From an uncultured Microcaldota archaeon (GTDB lineage: Archaea; Micrarchaeota; Micrarchaeia; CAILAH01), in contig CAILAH010000017.1 in NCBI GenBank assembly GCA_903832205.1, positions 1 through 35,927 of the forward strand: DNA of 35,927 nt. Reading direction: 5' to 3'. The notes beneath the pieces were generated by a model that worked only from the letters and a program-made list of their open reading frames with translations, was not told the DNA's origin and did not search any database. Below, piece by piece: positions 5,550-31,358 of this stretch. The translations under genes and the position numbers were made by a program. How positions within the stretch are numbered: the first letter of the stretch is position 1; every line of letters begins with the position of its first letter.

Positions 5550-6119
5550 TTATTTCTTTGCAAACGTCAGGTAGCCGGTGTGCACCATGCCAAAGTTGTC
5601 TGGCCTGCATCCGAAATCCCTTATTGTGTAGTGCGTTACGTTCGAGGTTATGGTGAACACCTGCCTGAAGAGCTTTGAGCACTCAAGCGAGAACTCCTTT
5701 GCCTGCTCGATGTTGGGGCAGTAGCTCACGAGCCAGCCGCCATTCTTAATGCGCGGATGCATTTGCGGGATGAGCAGATTGGAGCCCTTGAAATCTAGGA
5801 ATATTAAATCAAGGTTATCCTGGTCAAGCGCGGACATCTCCTCGTTCTTGAGAGTGACGTTCTCAAGCTTGAGACGCTGTACGTTTGCAAGCGCAACCTT
5901 GTAATGCTCCTCGCGGTTCTCATAGGAATAGACGTGCTTCGCGATGCGCGCGAGCTGGACGGTCATGAATCCAGTGCCGGCACCTGCCTCCGCAACAATA
6001 GAATCCTTGCCAATGCCGGTATAGGCAACCACTGCGCCAAAATCCTTGGGCAGGACAACCGCGGCACCGCGGCTCAATTTCATAAGGTCTTCAGGTATTT
6101 CATTAAAGAACTCTGGCAT
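5550..6119 (-). CDS. TrmI-like tRNA (adenine-N1) methyltransferase, short form
   Basis: A 189-residue SAM-dependent methyltransferase of the TrmI family, which makes m1A at positions 57/58 of the tRNA T-loop in archaea. VVLPKDFGAVVAYTGIG leads into SAM motif I EAGAGTGFMT (residues 44-53), then YENREEHYKVALANV and the LDFKG motif IV. The frame stays open to 6197, but GGAGGTGG at 6125-6132 lies 5-6 bases before the ATG at 6119 (MPEFFNEIP), so I take that start. TrmI is usually about 250 residues with an N-terminal beta domain; here most of that domain is missing. It follows rtcB on the same strand after 83 bases containing two hairpins. Its predicted target is the loop that carries introns in both tRNA genes of this window. 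Confidence 0.8.
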   Translation of the reverse strand: MPEFFNEIPEDLMKLSRGAAVVLPKDFGAVVAYTGIGKDSIVAEAGAGTGFMTVQLARIAKHVYSYENREEHYKVALANVQRLKLENVTLKNEEMSALDQDNLDLIFLDFKGSNLLIPQMHPRIKNGGWLVSYCPNIEQAKEFSLECSKLFRQVFTITSNVTHYTIRDFGCRPDNFGMVHTGYLTFAKK

Positions 6120-6132
6120 TCGTAGCCACCTC

Positions 6133-6155
6133 CTAGGGGCAGATTCCTCCCCTAG
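6133..6155 (-). promoter_or_regulatory. Leader hairpin before trmI
   Basis: CTAGGGG (6133-6139) and CCCCTAG (6149-6155) are perfect 7-bp inverted repeats around 9 bases. In the minus-strand mRNA the hairpin ends against the GGAGGTGG ribosome-binding site of trmI, so it could modulate its exposure. Confidence 0.4.
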
Positions 6156-6166
6156 AACCCCTGATA

Positions 6167-6188
6167 GTTTTTTGCCAAGGCAAAAAAC
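6167..6188. repeat. 10-bp hairpin with TTTTGCC/GGCAAAA arms
   Basis: GTTTTTTGCC at 6167-6176 and GGCAAAAAAC at 6179-6188 form a perfect 10-bp stem with a 2-base loop. It lies between the stop of rtcB and the start of trmI. It resembles the hairpin at 16126-16145. It could act as a processing or attenuation site between the two genes. Confidence 0.55.
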
Positions 6189-6202
6189 ACAGGGCATTAA
6201 TA

Positions 6203-7660
6203 TTATCCCTTTACCACTCCGTGGGGGATCATGCGCGTTACCGCTTTTGCGAGCTTTGCGCCCACCACGGAATCTATCACGTCATCAATATCCTTGTATG
6301 CGCCAGGCGCCTCCTCGGAAATCACTTCGCTTTCTGCGGAGCGTATGTAAATGCCCTTCTGATTAAGCAGGTCCTTTACCATTGAGACCGGGTATGTGCG
6401 AATTGCCTCGTGCCTGCTCATGACCCTCCCTGCACCGTGGCACACTGAATGGAATGATTCTGCTGAGTCTGCAGTGCCCACGAGCACGTAGGATGCGGTG
6501 CCCATGCTTCCCGGGATCATCACCGGCTGGCCCACATCACGGTATGATGCGGGGACTTCCGGGCGGCCTGCTGGCATTGAGCGTGTCGCGCCTTTCCTGT
6601 GCACCCACACGAATCCCTTCTGGCCGTTTTCAAGAACGTGCTCCTCGCGCTTGCCGATGTTGTGGCACACGTCGTAAAGAACATCCATCCCCAAATCCTC
6701 AGGGTCCTGCTTAAGTATGATGCCAACTGATTCGCGCACCCAGTGCGTGAGCAGCTGCCTGTTGACGAATGCGAAGTTCACCGCGCAGTTCATTGCCTTA
6801 ATGTAATCGCTGCCTTCGGTTGAATCCACGTGCGCGTAAACGAGCTCGCGGTCGGCCAAGGTGATGTTGTGCTTGTTCACGTATGAATTGAATGTGCGTA
6901 TGTAATCCGAAGCGACCTGGTGCCCGAGCCCGCGCGAGCCGGTGTGTATCATGATAACGAACTGGCCGGGAAAGAGGCCGAACTTCTTCGCAACCTCCTC
7001 ATCAAGCACCTGGTTGACTTCCTGCAATTCAATGAAATGGTTTCCCGAGCCGATGGTGCCGAGCTGCGGCTTGCCCCGCGAAATCGCCATGTCGCTGACC
7101 TTTGACGGGTCCGCATCCTTCATGCGGCCGTTCTCCTCAATGTAATGCAGATCGCGGTCCCAGCCGTACCCCTCGCGCACCGCCCACTCAACGCCCTCAG
7201 TAAGCACCTTCTTCAGAGTTGTTGGGTCGAGACGAACTTTTCCTTTTGAGCCAACGCCCGAAGGGCAGTTCTCATAAATCGAGTTGATGAGAGGATGCAG
7301 ATGTTGCACCACATCCTTGTACATGAGATTAGTCTTGAGCAGGCGGACGCCGCAATTTATGTCATAGCCAATCCCTCCGGGCGAGATGATGCCCTCCTCA
7401 TCGCGGAATGCGGCAACACCGCCGATTGGGAACCCGTAGCCCTCGTGGCCGTCGGGCATAACATATGCGGAGCGCACGATGCCCGGAAGGGACGCGACGT
7501 TGCAAATCTGCCTGAGCGTCCTGTCACCCTTCATCTTGTCGAGCATTTTCTCGGATGCAAACACCTGAGCAGGCACATTCATATTGCCCGTCTGCGGAAT
7601 CTGCCAAACATAATTGCTGATTTTGTTGAACGTTATTGTGGGTGTTTCTTCCTCTGTCAT
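6203..7660 (-). CDS. rtcB: RNA-splicing ligase RtcB
   Basis: A 485-residue RtcB, the GTP- and Mn-dependent ligase that joins 2',3'-cyclic-phosphate and 5'-OH RNA ends, including tRNA halves after intron excision. Visible motifs in order: MPDGHEGYGFPIGGVAAF (about 68-85), GGIGYDINCGVRL (95-107, with metal ligand Cys103), GSGNHFIELQEV, HTGSRGLGH, CHNIGKREEH, HRKGATRSMPAG, and the active-site segment FHSVCHGAGRVMSR containing the guanylylated His. No intein is present. The frame is open to 7885, but that part overlaps the divergent gene; the ATG at 7660 (MTEEETPTITFN) has a TATA box about 20 bases upstream and gives the usual length. It is upstream of trmI on the same strand. Confidence 0.97.
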   Translation of the reverse strand: MTEEETPTITFNKISNYVWQIPQTGNMNVPAQVFASEKMLDKMKGDRTLRQICNVASLPGIVRSAYVMPDGHEGYGFPIGGVAAFRDEEGIISPGGIGYDINCGVRLLKTNLMYKDVVQHLHPLINSIYENCPSGVGSKGKVRLDPTTLKKVLTEGVEWAVREGYGWDRDLHYIEENGRMKDADPSKVSDMAISRGKPQLGTIGSGNHFIELQEVNQVLDEEVAKKFGLFPGQFVIMIHTGSRGLGHQVASDYIRTFNSYVNKHNITLADRELVYAHVDSTEGSDYIKAMNCAVNFAFVNRQLLTHWVRESVGIILKQDPEDLGMDVLYDVCHNIGKREEHVLENGQKGFVWVHRKGATRSMPAGRPEVPASYRDVGQPVMIPGSMGTASYVLVGTADSAESFHSVCHGAGRVMSRHEAIRTYPVSMVKDLLNQKGIYIRSAESEVISEEAPGAYKDIDDVIDSVVGAKLAKAVTRMIPHGVVKG

Positions 7661-7675
7661 TGGAGTTCCTTTTGG

Positions 7676-7692
7676 GTATAAAGGTATATTAA
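7676..7692. promoter_or_regulatory. Overlapping divergent TATA boxes for rtcB and the PrsW-like gene
   Basis: GTATAAAGG (7676-7684; CCTTTATAC on the minus strand) lies 16-24 bases before the rtcB ATG. GTATATTAA (about 7684-7692) lies 23-31 bases before the plus-strand ATG at 7715. The two elements abut, so the divergent promoters may compete. Confidence 0.5.
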
Positions 7693-7714
7693 GATGGCGG
7701 TTTAATGCTATTTT

Positions 7715-8758
7715 ATGGCCTATCTCGAGCTTGCGGTGTGGCTTTTTGCGGCAACCGCAATTATGATGGTGCTTGCCCTTTACACGGCACTGCACAAAAA
7801 GGGATGGCTGGCAATTGTGGACGTGTTCATGCCGGAGATGAGAGGGCTCACGCCAAGCTCTGAGGTCGCTGCAATCATCGTCCACCCTCTATTCTGGATT
7901 ACATGCGTTGGAATCGTAACATTCTTCACAATCTCGCTCATGTTTACAATAGACCTGACAAAGGTGGGCTATGAATGGCTCGCGTTCTCTTTTTCACTGG
8001 TCATATTCTTCGCATTGTTCGACCCCATGGTGATATGGTTCAGCGAGGGAAAGTACAGGGAGCCGCTGAGGTTCGTGTTCGGCGCATTAAGCTACGGGAT
8101 GTTGTGCGCGTTGGTTGCATTCTTCTTCAACTCCATGGCCAGCCTCTTGCTTAACGAGGAATTCGGCCCCAAGATGGGCGTGCTCATGCTGATAGCCGCA
8201 GCACCGGTGATTGAGGAAGTGCTCAAGATGTTCGGAGTGATTCTCCTTTCAGGGCACAAGAACTTCAGGGGACCGCTTGATGGGATACTTATCGGGTTTT
8301 CAGTAGGTGCAGGGTTCGCAATGGTGGAGAACATATTCTACATATCAACAAAGATACCGGAGAACTCGATTGAGCTGCTCCTGTTCCGCGCGTTATATAA
8401 TACACTGGCGCACGGCGCGTTCACCGCAATAGGAGGCGCGGTGCTCGGCAAGATAAAGCAGGATTTCAAGAAGCCGAACCTGCTGCTGCTTACGGTCCCG
8501 GTGCTGGTTGCCGCGCTCACGCATACCGCATTCAATGTATTGGCAATCGTGGATATAGTGGGAGTCAATTCGCTCGTGCTCAGTTACTACATATTCAGCC
8601 CCGCAATGGTTGTGGCACTGCTCATCATCGTTGCAATACTCATTTTCTACAACTGGAGTGACAGGAAAAAGAGGATGAACAAGGAGCTTGCGGAGCTGGG
8701 CGTGGATGCGAATTTTGACAAGGAATTTGCAAAGCTGAAGAAGAAGGCGAACAAATAA
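7715..8758 (+). CDS. PrsW-like intramembrane metalloprotease
   Basis: A 347-residue membrane protein with about eight predicted helices. The middle has the PrsW-family signature: APVIEEVLKMFGV (about 168-180, with the Glu pair), DGILIGFSVGAGFAMVENIF (about 188-207), HGAFTAIGGAVLG and HTAFNVL. These Glu and His residues are the expected metal and catalytic ligands. PrsW proteases cleave membrane-bound anti-sigma factors in Bacillus; archaeal members exist but their substrates are not established, and there is no anti-sigma target here. The C-terminus (about 310-347) is a charged cytoplasmic tail. The start is a probable leaderless ATG, with a TATA box overlapping the divergent rtcB promoter. 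Confidence 0.85.
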   Translation: MAYLELAVWLFAATAIMMVLALYTALHKKGWLAIVDVFMPEMRGLTPSSEVAAIIVHPLFWITCVGIVTFFTISLMFTIDLTKVGYEWLAFSFSLVIFFALFDPMVIWFSEGKYREPLRFVFGALSYGMLCALVAFFFNSMASLLLNEEFGPKMGVLMLIAAAPVIEEVLKMFGVILLSGHKNFRGPLDGILIGFSVGAGFAMVENIFYISTKIPENSIELLLFRALYNTLAHGAFTAIGGAVLGKIKQDFKKPNLLLLTVPVLVAALTHTAFNVLAIVDIVGVNSLVLSYYIFSPAMVVALLIIVAILIFYNWSDRKKRMNKELAELGVDANFDKEFAKLKKKANK

Positions 8759-16082: not shown

Positions 16083-16095
16083 GCCGGGGTTGCAG
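16083..16095 (+). repeat. Near-copy of the tRNA-Ser 5' end
   Basis: GCCGGGGTTGCAG matches GCCGGGGTGGCAG at 16167-16179 at 12 of 13 bases, 84 bases upstream. The following sequence does not fold as a tRNA. It may be a scar of partial duplication. Confidence 0.35.
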
Positions 16096-16096
16096 G

Positions 16097-16121
16097 CACA
16101 TATTTGCGTGAGCAAATTGTG
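16097..16121. repeat. Bulged hairpin with ATTTGC/GCAAAT arms
   Basis: CACA and ATTTGC (16097-16100 and 16102-16107) pair with GCAAAT and TGTG (16112-16117 and 16118-16121). One bulged T and a GTGA loop give a 10-bp stem. Confidence 0.5.
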
Positions 16122-16125
16122 TCGC

Positions 16126-16145
16126 CTTTTGCCTTTGGGCAAAAG
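16126..16145. repeat. 8-bp hairpin with TTTTGCC/GGCAAAA arms
   Basis: CTTTTGCC (16126-16133) pairs with GGCAAAAG (16138-16145) around a TTTG loop. The arms share the TTTTGCC core of the hairpin at 6167-6188. Confidence 0.55.
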
Positions 16146-16148
16146 AAC

Positions 16149-16163
16149 GGGAGCGCAGCTCCC
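16149..16163. repeat. 6-bp GC hairpin abutting tRNA-Ser
   Basis: GGGAGC (16149-16154) pairs with GCTCCC (16158-16163) around GCA. It ends three bases before the mature tRNA 5' end and may shape the leader for 5' processing. Confidence 0.45.
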
Positions 16164-16166
16164 TGC

Positions 16167-16292
16167 GCCGGGGTGGCAGAATCCGGTAATGCGCTAGACT
16201 CGAAATCTAGTGTCCGCAAGGACTTAGGAGTTCAAATCTGCATCGCAAGCGATGTCTATTCGCTTCGGGCAGCGAAAATCTCCTCTCCGGCG
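16167..16292 (+). tRNA. tRNA-Ser(CGA) with a T-loop intron
   Basis: A complete class II tRNA folds once a 42-base insert is removed. The acceptor is GCCGGGG with CTCCGGC (16285-16291), discriminator G at 16292, and no encoded CCA. The anticodon stem is CTAGA/TCTAG with loop CTCGAAA and anticodon CGA at 16201-16203. A long variable arm has GTCC/GGAC around GCAA. The T stem is AGGAG (16226-16230) with CTCCT (16280-16284). The T-loop is interrupted after TTCAAA (16236) and resumes with T (16279), which restores the canonical 7-base loop TTCAAAT. The mature tRNA would be 84 bases. Serine identity rests on the anticodon and the long variable arm. Confidence 0.9.
16237..16278 (+). other. tRNA-Ser intron at position 59/60 (T-loop)
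   Basis: The 42-base insert fits a bulge-helix-bulge fold. The outer helix is the T stem AGGAG/CTCCT. The 3-base bulge AAT (16277-16279) is at the 3' junction. The central helix pairs TTCA with CGAA (three pairs plus one A-C mismatch). A second 3-base bulge AAT (16235-16237) is at the 5' junction. The inner helix is CTGC (16238-16241) with GCAG. Cutting at the same place in both AAT bulges gives the mature loop. The interior also has CATCGC/GCGATG arms. Confidence 0.8.
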
Positions 16293-16320
16293 TAGGTTTA
16301 TTTTATGTGATGGTGATCTG

Positions 16321-17460
16321 ATGAAGGCGGTGTTTGGAAAAACGGTTTACACGGGCGATAAGTCTGCTGCTAATGCATATGTGGTTTTTGGCGATGATGG
16401 AAAGATTACAGAAGTCACTGCACAGAAACCAAAATGCGATGTGATTGGCGAATATGAAGTTGTCACTCCAGGGTTCATTGATTCGCACTCGCACATTGGG
16501 CTTGACAGGGCTGGCGAGCCGTTCGATGAGGCAGATACGAACGATAAGATGAACTCGCTAATGTTCACGCTTGATGCGTACGATGGATTAGTGATGGAGG
16601 ACAGGTCGTTCAAGGAGTCGGTTGAGTTCGGCGTGCTTTACTCCTGCGTCCTGCCGGGAAGCGGTAATATCGTGGGCGGAAAAGGCGCGGTAATCAGGAA
16701 CTTCGCAAAGGCGAAGGATGAGGCGTACATAAGGAGCGGCGGCATAAAGGCGGCGCTGGGCTGGAACCCCAAGAGCACAAATGAATGGAAGGGCGAAAGG
16801 CCAACAACAAGGCTCGGTGCGGTGGCAATGCTCAGGAATGCGCTCGAAAGCGGAAGGAAGATGAAAGAGCTTGTTGCGAAGGGAAAGAAGGAGAAGGAGG
16901 AGCTGGACCCCGCAGATGATGTCGTAATAAAGCTGCTTAACAGGGAGGAGAGGTTCAGGGTGCACCTGCACAAAGAGGATGACCTGAACACACTGATTAA
17001 GCTGAAGAACGAGTATGGCCTTGATGTGGTGGTTGAGCACGCGGGCGATTTCCACAGGAAGGAATCTTTTGACAGGTTCACCAAGGAGAACATCCCGCTC
17101 ATATTCGGGCCCATTGACAGCTTCCCCTATAAGGTGGAATTGGTCCACGAGAGCTGGAGGAATGTGAAATATCTGATTGAGAGCGGTGCAAAGTATTCAG
17201 TGATGACCGACCACTCAGTTGTATTGCAGAGGAATCTGTTCCTGCAGCTGCGGTTCTTCAGGAGGTTCGGGCTTTCAAAAGAGGAGTGCATCTCAAAGAT
17301 TACAAAGAACGCTTCGGAAATCCTGAAGATTAACGACATGGTTGGGACGCTTGAAAAAGGAAAGATGGCCTCATTGAGCTGCTGGAACGGCGACCCGTTC
17401 AGCCTGGATTCCTATCCCGTGCTGGTTTACGGCGAGGGAAAGGAGCTCTATAGCGAATAA
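16321..17460 (+). CDS. Amidohydrolase-family metalloenzyme, HutI-like
   Basis: A 379-residue amidohydrolase (imidazolonepropionase/COG1228-like group). A beta-sandwich N-terminus leads to metal motif PGFIDSHSHIGLDRAGE (about 50-66). Then come the ESVEFGVLYSCVLPGSGNIVGG segment, HLHKEDD (about 219), VVEHAGD (about 240) and MTDHSVV (about 297), which supply the expected His and Asp metal ligands. ILKINDMVGTLEKGKMASLS is the usual C-terminal motif returning to the sandwich. The substrate cannot be told from sequence, and no histidine-degradation genes are nearby. The frame extends up to 16252 inside tRNA-Ser; GGTGAT just before the ATG at 16321 supports the later start. Confidence 0.82.
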   Translation: MKAVFGKTVYTGDKSAANAYVVFGDDGKITEVTAQKPKCDVIGEYEVVTPGFIDSHSHIGLDRAGEPFDEADTNDKMNSLMFTLDAYDGLVMEDRSFKESVEFGVLYSCVLPGSGNIVGGKGAVIRNFAKAKDEAYIRSGGIKAALGWNPKSTNEWKGERPTTRLGAVAMLRNALESGRKMKELVAKGKKEKEELDPADDVVIKLLNREERFRVHLHKEDDLNTLIKLKNEYGLDVVVEHAGDFHRKESFDRFTKENIPLIFGPIDSFPYKVELVHESWRNVKYLIESGAKYSVMTDHSVVLQRNLFLQLRFFRRFGLSKEECISKITKNASEILKINDMVGTLEKGKMASLSCWNGDPFSLDSYPVLVYGEGKELYSE

Positions 17461-31235: not shown

Positions 31236-31358
31236 GGGCCCGTAGCTCAGCTTGGCTAGAGCGGCGGACTTTTAATCCGAAGGTCGCGGGTTCAAAAGCA
31301 CTTTCTTTGCGCGGCAAAGAACCTGCACTAAGAAAGCCTGAAAATCCCGTCGGGCCCG
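31236..31358 (+). tRNA. tRNA-Lys(UUU) with a T-loop intron
   Basis: A complete tRNA folds when a 48-base insert is removed. The acceptor is GGGCCCG with CGGGCCC (31351-31357), discriminator G at 31358, no encoded CCA. The D stem is GCTC/GAGC. The anticodon stem is GCGGA/TCCGA with a G-A mismatch at 27-43, loop CTTTTAA, anticodon TTT at 31271-31273. The T stem is GCGGG (31286-31290) with CCCGT (31346-31350). The T-loop is interrupted after TTCAAA (31296) and resumes with T (31345), restoring TTCAAAT. The mature tRNA would be 75 bases. A T-run (31362-31366) shortly after the 3' end may be the terminator. Confidence 0.92.
31297..31344 (+). other. tRNA-Lys intron at position 59/60 (T-loop)
   Basis: The 48-base insert fits a bulge-helix-bulge fold. 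The outer helix is the T stem. The 3-base bulge AAT (31343-31345) is at the 3' junction. A perfect 4-bp central helix pairs TTCA with TGAA. A 3-base bulge AAA (31295-31297) is at the 5' junction. The inner stem CTTTCTT/AAGAAAG is preceded by a small internal loop. An alternative inner hairpin TTCTTTGC/GCAAAGAA is also possible. Confidence 0.82.

What the first reader, a model, noticed from the sequence alone, without database searches (positions are those of the whole stretch)
16226..16284. tRNA-Ser(CGA) is interrupted inside the T-loop by a 42-base BHB-type intron
The T stem AGGAG/CTCCT closes only when 16237-16278 is removed. The mature loop becomes TTCAAAT. Both junctions lie in 3-base AAT bulges flanking a central helix with one A-C mismatch. 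Most archaeal tRNA introns lie at 37/38; T-loop introns are known mainly from Thermoproteales. Standard annotation may miss the gene or call it a pseudogene.
Basis: partly seen in the sequence, partly recalled or inferred. Interest (0 to 1): 0.72.

Follow-up and report, generated by a model that had tools for sequence, protein, structure and literature searches.

The report
Serine tRNA gene with T-loop intron
In a tiny archaeon (a Micrarchaeote), the gene for one serine transfer RNA is interrupted by a 42-base intron in an unusual place, the T-loop; this is real and one of about nine such cases seen in this genome, but it belongs to a kind of archaeal tRNA intron that is already known.

Summary
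Removing 16237-16278 (42 nt) turns an undetectable locus into a complete 84-nt tRNA-Ser(CGA) with T-loop TTCAAAT. The junctions form a 3-4-3 bulge-helix-bulge: TTCA/CGAA with one A.C mismatch, AAT bulges, inner helix CTGC/GCAG; the site is tRNA position 59/60. Genomes of the same genus and family carry this tRNA with an uninterrupted T-loop; the congener instead has inserts in its D arm and anticodon loop. The host is a Micrarchaeote with an epsilon-2 EndA close to ARMAN-2's, catalytic triad and loop lysine conserved; RtcB lies in this window. It is not isolated: window tRNA-Lys(UUU) has its own T-loop intron (31297-31344), about seven more occur in this genome, and dozens of 59/60 introns with this motif occur in Micrarchaeota. 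Position 59/60, ARMAN multi-intron tRNAs and intron transposition are published, so this is a new member of a known kind. More unusual, noticed in passing: structured intron and repeat families recurring in tRNA, rRNA and tRNA-flanking sites. There is no transcript evidence.

The parts
16167..16236 (+). tRNA-Ser(CGA) 5' exon (positions 1-59)
   Evidence: ARAGORN on spliced sequence; homology to relatives
16237..16278 (+). 42-nt T-loop intron, site 59/60
   Evidence: T-loop uninterrupted in relatives; no related sequence in 117 genomes
16279..16292 (+). tRNA-Ser(CGA) 3' exon (positions 60-73)
16226..16230 (+). T stem 5' strand AGGAG (outer helix of the BHB)
16231..16234 (+). central BHB helix, 5' strand TTCA
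   Evidence: sequence; motif shared by other T-loop introns
16235..16237 (+). 5' bulge AAT; inferred cut after the second base
   Evidence: sequence; inference from the archaeal BHB rule
16238..16241 (+). inner helix 5' strand CTGC
16269..16272 (+). inner helix 3' strand GCAG
16273..16276 (+). central BHB helix, 3' strand CGAA (A.C mismatch with TTCA)
   Evidence: sequence; YGAA in most T-loop introns
16277..16279 (+). 3' bulge AAT; inferred cut after the second base
   Evidence: sequence; AAT in 33 of 41 cases
16280..16284 (+). T stem 3' strand CTCCT
31236..31296 (+). tRNA-Lys(UUU) 5' exon
31297..31344 (+). 48-nt T-loop intron of tRNA-Lys(UUU), central helix TTCA/TGAA
31345..31358 (+). tRNA-Lys(UUU) 3' exon
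6203..7885 (-). RtcB, the tRNA-splicing ligase (ORF as called; RtcB domain in residues 126-560)

Best explanation
The locus encodes a functional tRNA-Ser(CGA) whose precursor carries a 42-nt BHB intron at 59/60 in the T-loop. Shown: the intron's CGAA can pair with loop bases TTCA (one A.C mismatch) between the T stem and an intron helix CTGC/GCAG, giving a 3-4-3 BHB, and removal gives a complete class II tRNA. Inferred: the epsilon-2 EndA cuts each AAT bulge after its second base, RtcB joins position 59 to 60, and T-loop folding and modification follow. The intron was probably gained in this lineage, because genomes of the same genus and family have this tRNA without a T-loop intron; the source of this particular intron is unknown.
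For: ARAGORN detects tRNA-Ser(cga) only after removal of the 42 nt. BHB geometry and low folding energy. Empty site: congener G001 is 100% identical over mature positions 36-84 with an intact T-loop; G002 and G004 have no intron, G003 only an anticodon-loop one. Same motif in many Micrarchaeota tRNAs; in tRNA-Glu, where loop position 57 is G, the intron has CGAA instead of TGAA, a compensatory change. Epsilon-2 EndA: E = 1e-120 to 4fz2 (ARMAN-2), with loop Y160/K161 and catalytic Y236/H251/K282 matched in the alignment, residues as named in PMC6379350 and PMC12397907. RtcB with E = 2e-170. No second Ser(CGA) in the assembly.
Against: No RNA data. The central helix has an A.C mismatch, so the motif is slightly relaxed; minimum-energy folding leaves the 7x7 loop open, though TTCA/CGAA also occurs in another lineage (L121) and epsilon-2 EndA is reported to accept relaxed motifs (PMC6379350). 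The genome is only about 82% complete, so an intact copy could be missing.
Confidence: 0.94

Rival explanations
1. The locus is a tRNA pseudogene broken by an insertion in the T-loop.
For: The finders tried here miss it.
Against: All stems and the CGA anticodon are intact after splicing; the insertion sits at the site and in the motif shared with many other tRNAs; no other Ser(CGA) in the assembly.
Confidence: 0.03
2. On origin rather than function: the intron arose as a copy of a mobile structured element, tolerated because it can be spliced out; the T-loop site is a landing site for such elements. This is compatible with the intron reading.
For: Other T-loop introns in this genome belong to sequence families shared between different tRNAs, tRNA positions and rRNA.
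Against: This particular intron has no detectable relative in 117 genomes.
Confidence: 0.25
3. The insertion is an assembly or chimera artefact.
For: The assembly is fragmented: 70 contigs, 82% complete.
Against: Exact BHB geometry, exact tRNA continuity on both sides, and the same architecture in independent genomes.
Confidence: 0.01
4. The intron is self-splicing (group I or II), or the gene is split or permuted.
For: Group I introns occur in Micrarchaeota rRNA (PMC6125680).
Against: Only 42 nt; no Rfam match in the window other than a tRNA; both halves lie in order, 42 nt apart.
Confidence: 0.01

Closest known systems
Archaeal BHB tRNA introns at non-canonical positions, including 59/60 (reviewed in PMC4090602 and PMC6379350)
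   Same: Same site, 3-nt bulges around a 4-bp helix, removal restores the cloverleaf.
   Different: Host is a Micrarchaeote; one A.C mismatch in the central helix; intron sequence has no detected relative.
ARMAN-1/2 intron-containing tRNAs and epsilon-2 EndA (PMC4033280, PMC12397907)
   Same: Same phylum, same three-unit endonuclease with the loop lysine; ARMAN tRNAs carry multiple introns.
   Different: A different, more distant lineage of Micrarchaeota; whether ARMAN-2 has this exact Ser(CGA) T-loop intron was not tested.
tRNA intron transposition in Thermoproteales (Fujishima et al. 2010, as cited in PMC4090602)
   Same: Near-identical introns in different tRNAs of one genome, at canonical and non-canonical sites.
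   Different: The Ser intron itself is not a member of a shared family; in this lineage one family also occurs in 16S and 23S rRNA and in a second family of the class.
Intron-dense Asgard genomes (PMC11291895)
   Same: High density of multiple, non-canonically placed tRNA introns.
   Different: Unrelated lineage.

Membership tests
Archaeal BHB tRNA intron | Interrupts a tRNA gene; removal restores a complete cloverleaf | tested here: met
Archaeal BHB tRNA intron | Two 3-nt bulges flanking a 4-bp helix at the junctions | tested here: met
   3-4-3 geometry with 3 of 4 central pairs (A.C mismatch): sequence
Archaeal BHB tRNA intron | Genome encodes an EndA able to cut it | tested here: inconclusive
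   Epsilon-2 EndA gene present with catalytic and loop residues conserved; its activity on this precursor not tested
Archaeal BHB tRNA intron | Genome encodes the RtcB ligase | tested here: met
Archaeal BHB tRNA intron | Presence/absence variation among close relatives at the same site | tested here: met
Archaeal BHB tRNA intron | Excision and exon ligation in the cell | not testable with these tools
   needs RNA
Group I/II self-splicing intron | Catalytic core of several hundred nt | tested here: not met
   42 nt; no Rfam match other than a tRNA in the window
Transposed shared intron family (GGGAUGCC type) | Contains the conserved hairpin core | tested here: not met
   Ser intron lacks it and has no detected relative

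The most novel reading that the evidence does not exclude
In Micrarchaeota the T-loop site 59/60 is one landing site of small, structured mobile introns: one family (hairpin with UNGGGAUGCCU loop and GCxCCAGAAA tail) occupies T-loops and anticodon loops of different tRNAs, 16S and 23S rRNA, and once a protein-gene start flanked by a 23-25-nt duplication, and appears in two different families of the class; the Ser(CGA) intron would be an older or diverged product of such traffic.
Probability: 0.4. Interest if true: 0.65.

Novelty: new member of a known kind. Interest (0 to 1): 0.42.

Why it matters
The only tRNA-Ser(CGA) gene found in this genome is invisible to the tRNA tools tried here, so tRNA counts for such genomes can be too low. 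The congener pair, with an identical mature 3' part but inserts in three different places of the same tRNA, makes intron gain and loss directly comparable. The abundance of 59/60 introns in a genome with an epsilon-2 EndA fits the published idea that a permissive endonuclease and intron diversity evolve together.

Tried and rejected
The Ser intron was searched against 117 genomes for relatives: none. Rfam on the dispersed repeat families: no match except tRNA. The idea that the hairpin-rich stretch just 5' of the tRNA (16094-16166) is flanked by a duplication of the tRNA 5' end was weighed: the copy at L016 keeps the element's GGGGTTGCAG end without resembling its own tRNA, so the likeness is more probably part of the element. 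Pseudogene, group I intron and split-gene readings are treated as rivals. The scan of 60 genomes with a T-loop intron pattern is only suggestive: 168 matches against 57 for the reversed pattern (counted), many outside tRNAs.

Full report
OBSERVATION. The sequence at 16167-16292 reads as a serine tRNA up to the T-loop and again from the T stem's 3' strand. With 16237-16278 removed, ARAGORN calls tRNA-Ser(cga); with it present it calls nothing, and it finds no tRNA at all in the window. Rfam's tRNA model gives the unspliced gene 24.4 bits against a 29-bit cut-off.

BHB. Reading 5' to 3': AGGAG (T stem) - TTCA - AAT bulge - CTGC ... GCAG - CGAA - AAT bulge - CTCCT. The central helix is T-A, T-A, C-G, A.C. 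Folding of 16225-16285 finds T stem and CTGC/GCAG with a 7x7 loop between them (z -4.1). By the archaeal rule (each bulge cut after its second base; established knowledge) the mature loop is TTCAAAT and the site is 59/60.

NOT ALONE. In the same window tRNA-Lys(UUU) has a 48-nt T-loop intron, 31297-31344, with TTCA/TGAA, again found by ARAGORN only after splicing. A script that closes T stems across inserts and checks the result with ARAGORN found 41 such tRNA genes in the loci at hand, 29 with a 4/4 and 7 with a 3/4 central helix, 33 with the AAT bulge; random placement gives about 2%. Part of these loci had been fetched by a GAAAATC pattern and the best of several solutions was taken, so the proportion is inflated. 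In this genome the set is Ser(CGA), Lys(UUU), Gly(GCC), Glu(UUC), Val(GAC), Thr(GGU), Leu(UAA, TTCA/TGGA with a G.U pair) and two at loci L017/L190 and L019/L188 whose automatic isotype calls (Asn, Ser) are unreliable because further introns are present; L019 looks like Ile(GAU) by eye. Where loop base 57 is G (Glu), the intron carries CGAA rather than TGAA: a compensatory change. A pattern scan of 60 relatives gave 168 matches against 57 for the reversed control.

EMPTY SITES. In the congener G001 the orthologous tRNA matches mature positions 36-84 at 100% with an intact T-loop, but has inserts in the D arm and in the anticodon loop; G004 and G002 have no intron, and G003 only one in the anticodon loop. 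Parsimony favours a recent gain of the 59/60 intron in the window's lineage, though loss elsewhere cannot be excluded. Ser(CGA) of more distant genomes also has 59/60 introns of other sequence (L123, L140), so the site appears to have been used more than once. The Ser intron sequence itself has no detected relative in 117 genomes.

MACHINERY AND HOST. The genome's EndA (contig C13, 390 aa) matches the ARMAN-2 epsilon-2 enzyme 4fz2 over almost its whole length (residues 13-390, E 1e-120). The related loci in the genome collection are labelled Micrarchaeota or Micrarchaeum in nearly all cases, with some titles reading Marsarchaeota, Mancarchaeum or simply archaeon. Residues named in the literature as catalytic (Y236, H251, K282) and as the ARMAN-specific loop (Y160, K161) are conserved in the alignment (PMC6379350, PMC12397907). 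A second, weaker EndA-like protein of 161 aa lies on contig C3. RtcB lies in the window at 6203-7885. Beside it is a methyltransferase with a GCD14 domain (5550-6197), the family of the T-loop adenosine methylase; the assignment to that exact enzyme is an inference.

KNOWN OR NEW. Position 59/60 is listed among archaeal intron sites (PMC4090602); T-loop BHB motifs are mentioned in PMC6379350; ARMAN-1/2 multi-intron tRNAs are listed in PMC4033280; broad specificity of epsilon-2 EndA is described there, in PMC6379350 and in PMC12397907; transposition of introns between tRNAs is known from Thermoproteales (Fujishima 2010, cited in those reviews). I found no paper in the open library describing widespread 59/60 introns in Micrarchaeota, but most subscription papers are not held, nor is the 2011 ARMAN EndA paper, so this absence proves little.

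WIDER PICTURE (PARTLY FOLLOWED). A hairpin with loop UNGGGAUGCCU and tail GCxCCAGAAA recurs as an intron core: 22 exact-core matches in 8 of 117 genomes, none for the reversed pattern. All five genomes of the window's family have it, plus three genomes of another family. It lies in T-loops (Gly, Glu, Val here; a Leu-like tRNA in G084), anticodon loops (Val-UAC here; a triple tandem in a Gly tRNA of G001), what read by eye as 16S rRNA (L226, L254) and 23S rRNA (L216), and once at a protein gene start inside a 23-25-nt duplication (L225). A second repeat (GGTGTAGACCACACGAGG ... CATCAGTG) has 19 matches in this genome, in tRNA introns and just 3' of tRNAs, where the tRNA 3' end is repeated beyond it (30 nt exact at L027). 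How they spread is not established here.

SHOWN VERSUS INFERRED. Shown: sequence, motif, empty sites, genes for EndA and RtcB. Inferred: cleavage positions, ligation, order of T-loop modification, direction of intron gain. Not shown: expression and splicing.

Noticed in passing
window 31236-31358: tRNA-Lys(UUU) also carries a T-loop intron (48 nt, 31297-31344); its sequence resembles the anticodon-loop intron of tRNA-Gly(UCC) at L002.
   Followed up: yes
L027, L030, L013, L005, L226, L216, L238, L225: A structured intron family with the core UUUNGGGAUGCCUAAA recurs at T-loops, anticodon loops, 16S and 23S rRNA, and once at a protein-gene 5' end with a 23-25-nt flanking duplication; exact core in five genomes of the window's family and three of another family.
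   Followed up: partly
L027, L231, L015, L019, L013, L237: A hairpin-rich repeat (GGTGTAGACCACACGAGG...CATCAGTG) sits directly 3' of tRNA genes with the tRNA 3' end repeated beyond it (30 nt exact at L027), and also within tRNA introns (19 matches in the genome).
   Followed up: partly
window 16094-16166; L016; L004: A stable three-hairpin stretch abuts the 5' end of tRNA-Ser(CGA) and of other tRNA genes, where a promoter or short leader would be expected.
   Followed up: partly
L241 (G001 contig C13), L244 (G004 contig C2): The same intron core repeated head to tail two or three times inside or beside a tRNA.
   Followed up: no
window 16252-16320: The longest ORF call of the downstream amidohydrolase starts at an ATG inside the tRNA intron (16252); the start at 16321 is more plausible.
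   Followed up: no
window 5550-6197: A methyltransferase with a GCD14 domain (the family of the T-loop adenosine methylase) lies next to RtcB.
   Followed up: partly
L033 1471-1956 (contig C3): A second, 161-aa EndA-like protein, weakly matching, besides the epsilon-2 EndA.
   Followed up: no
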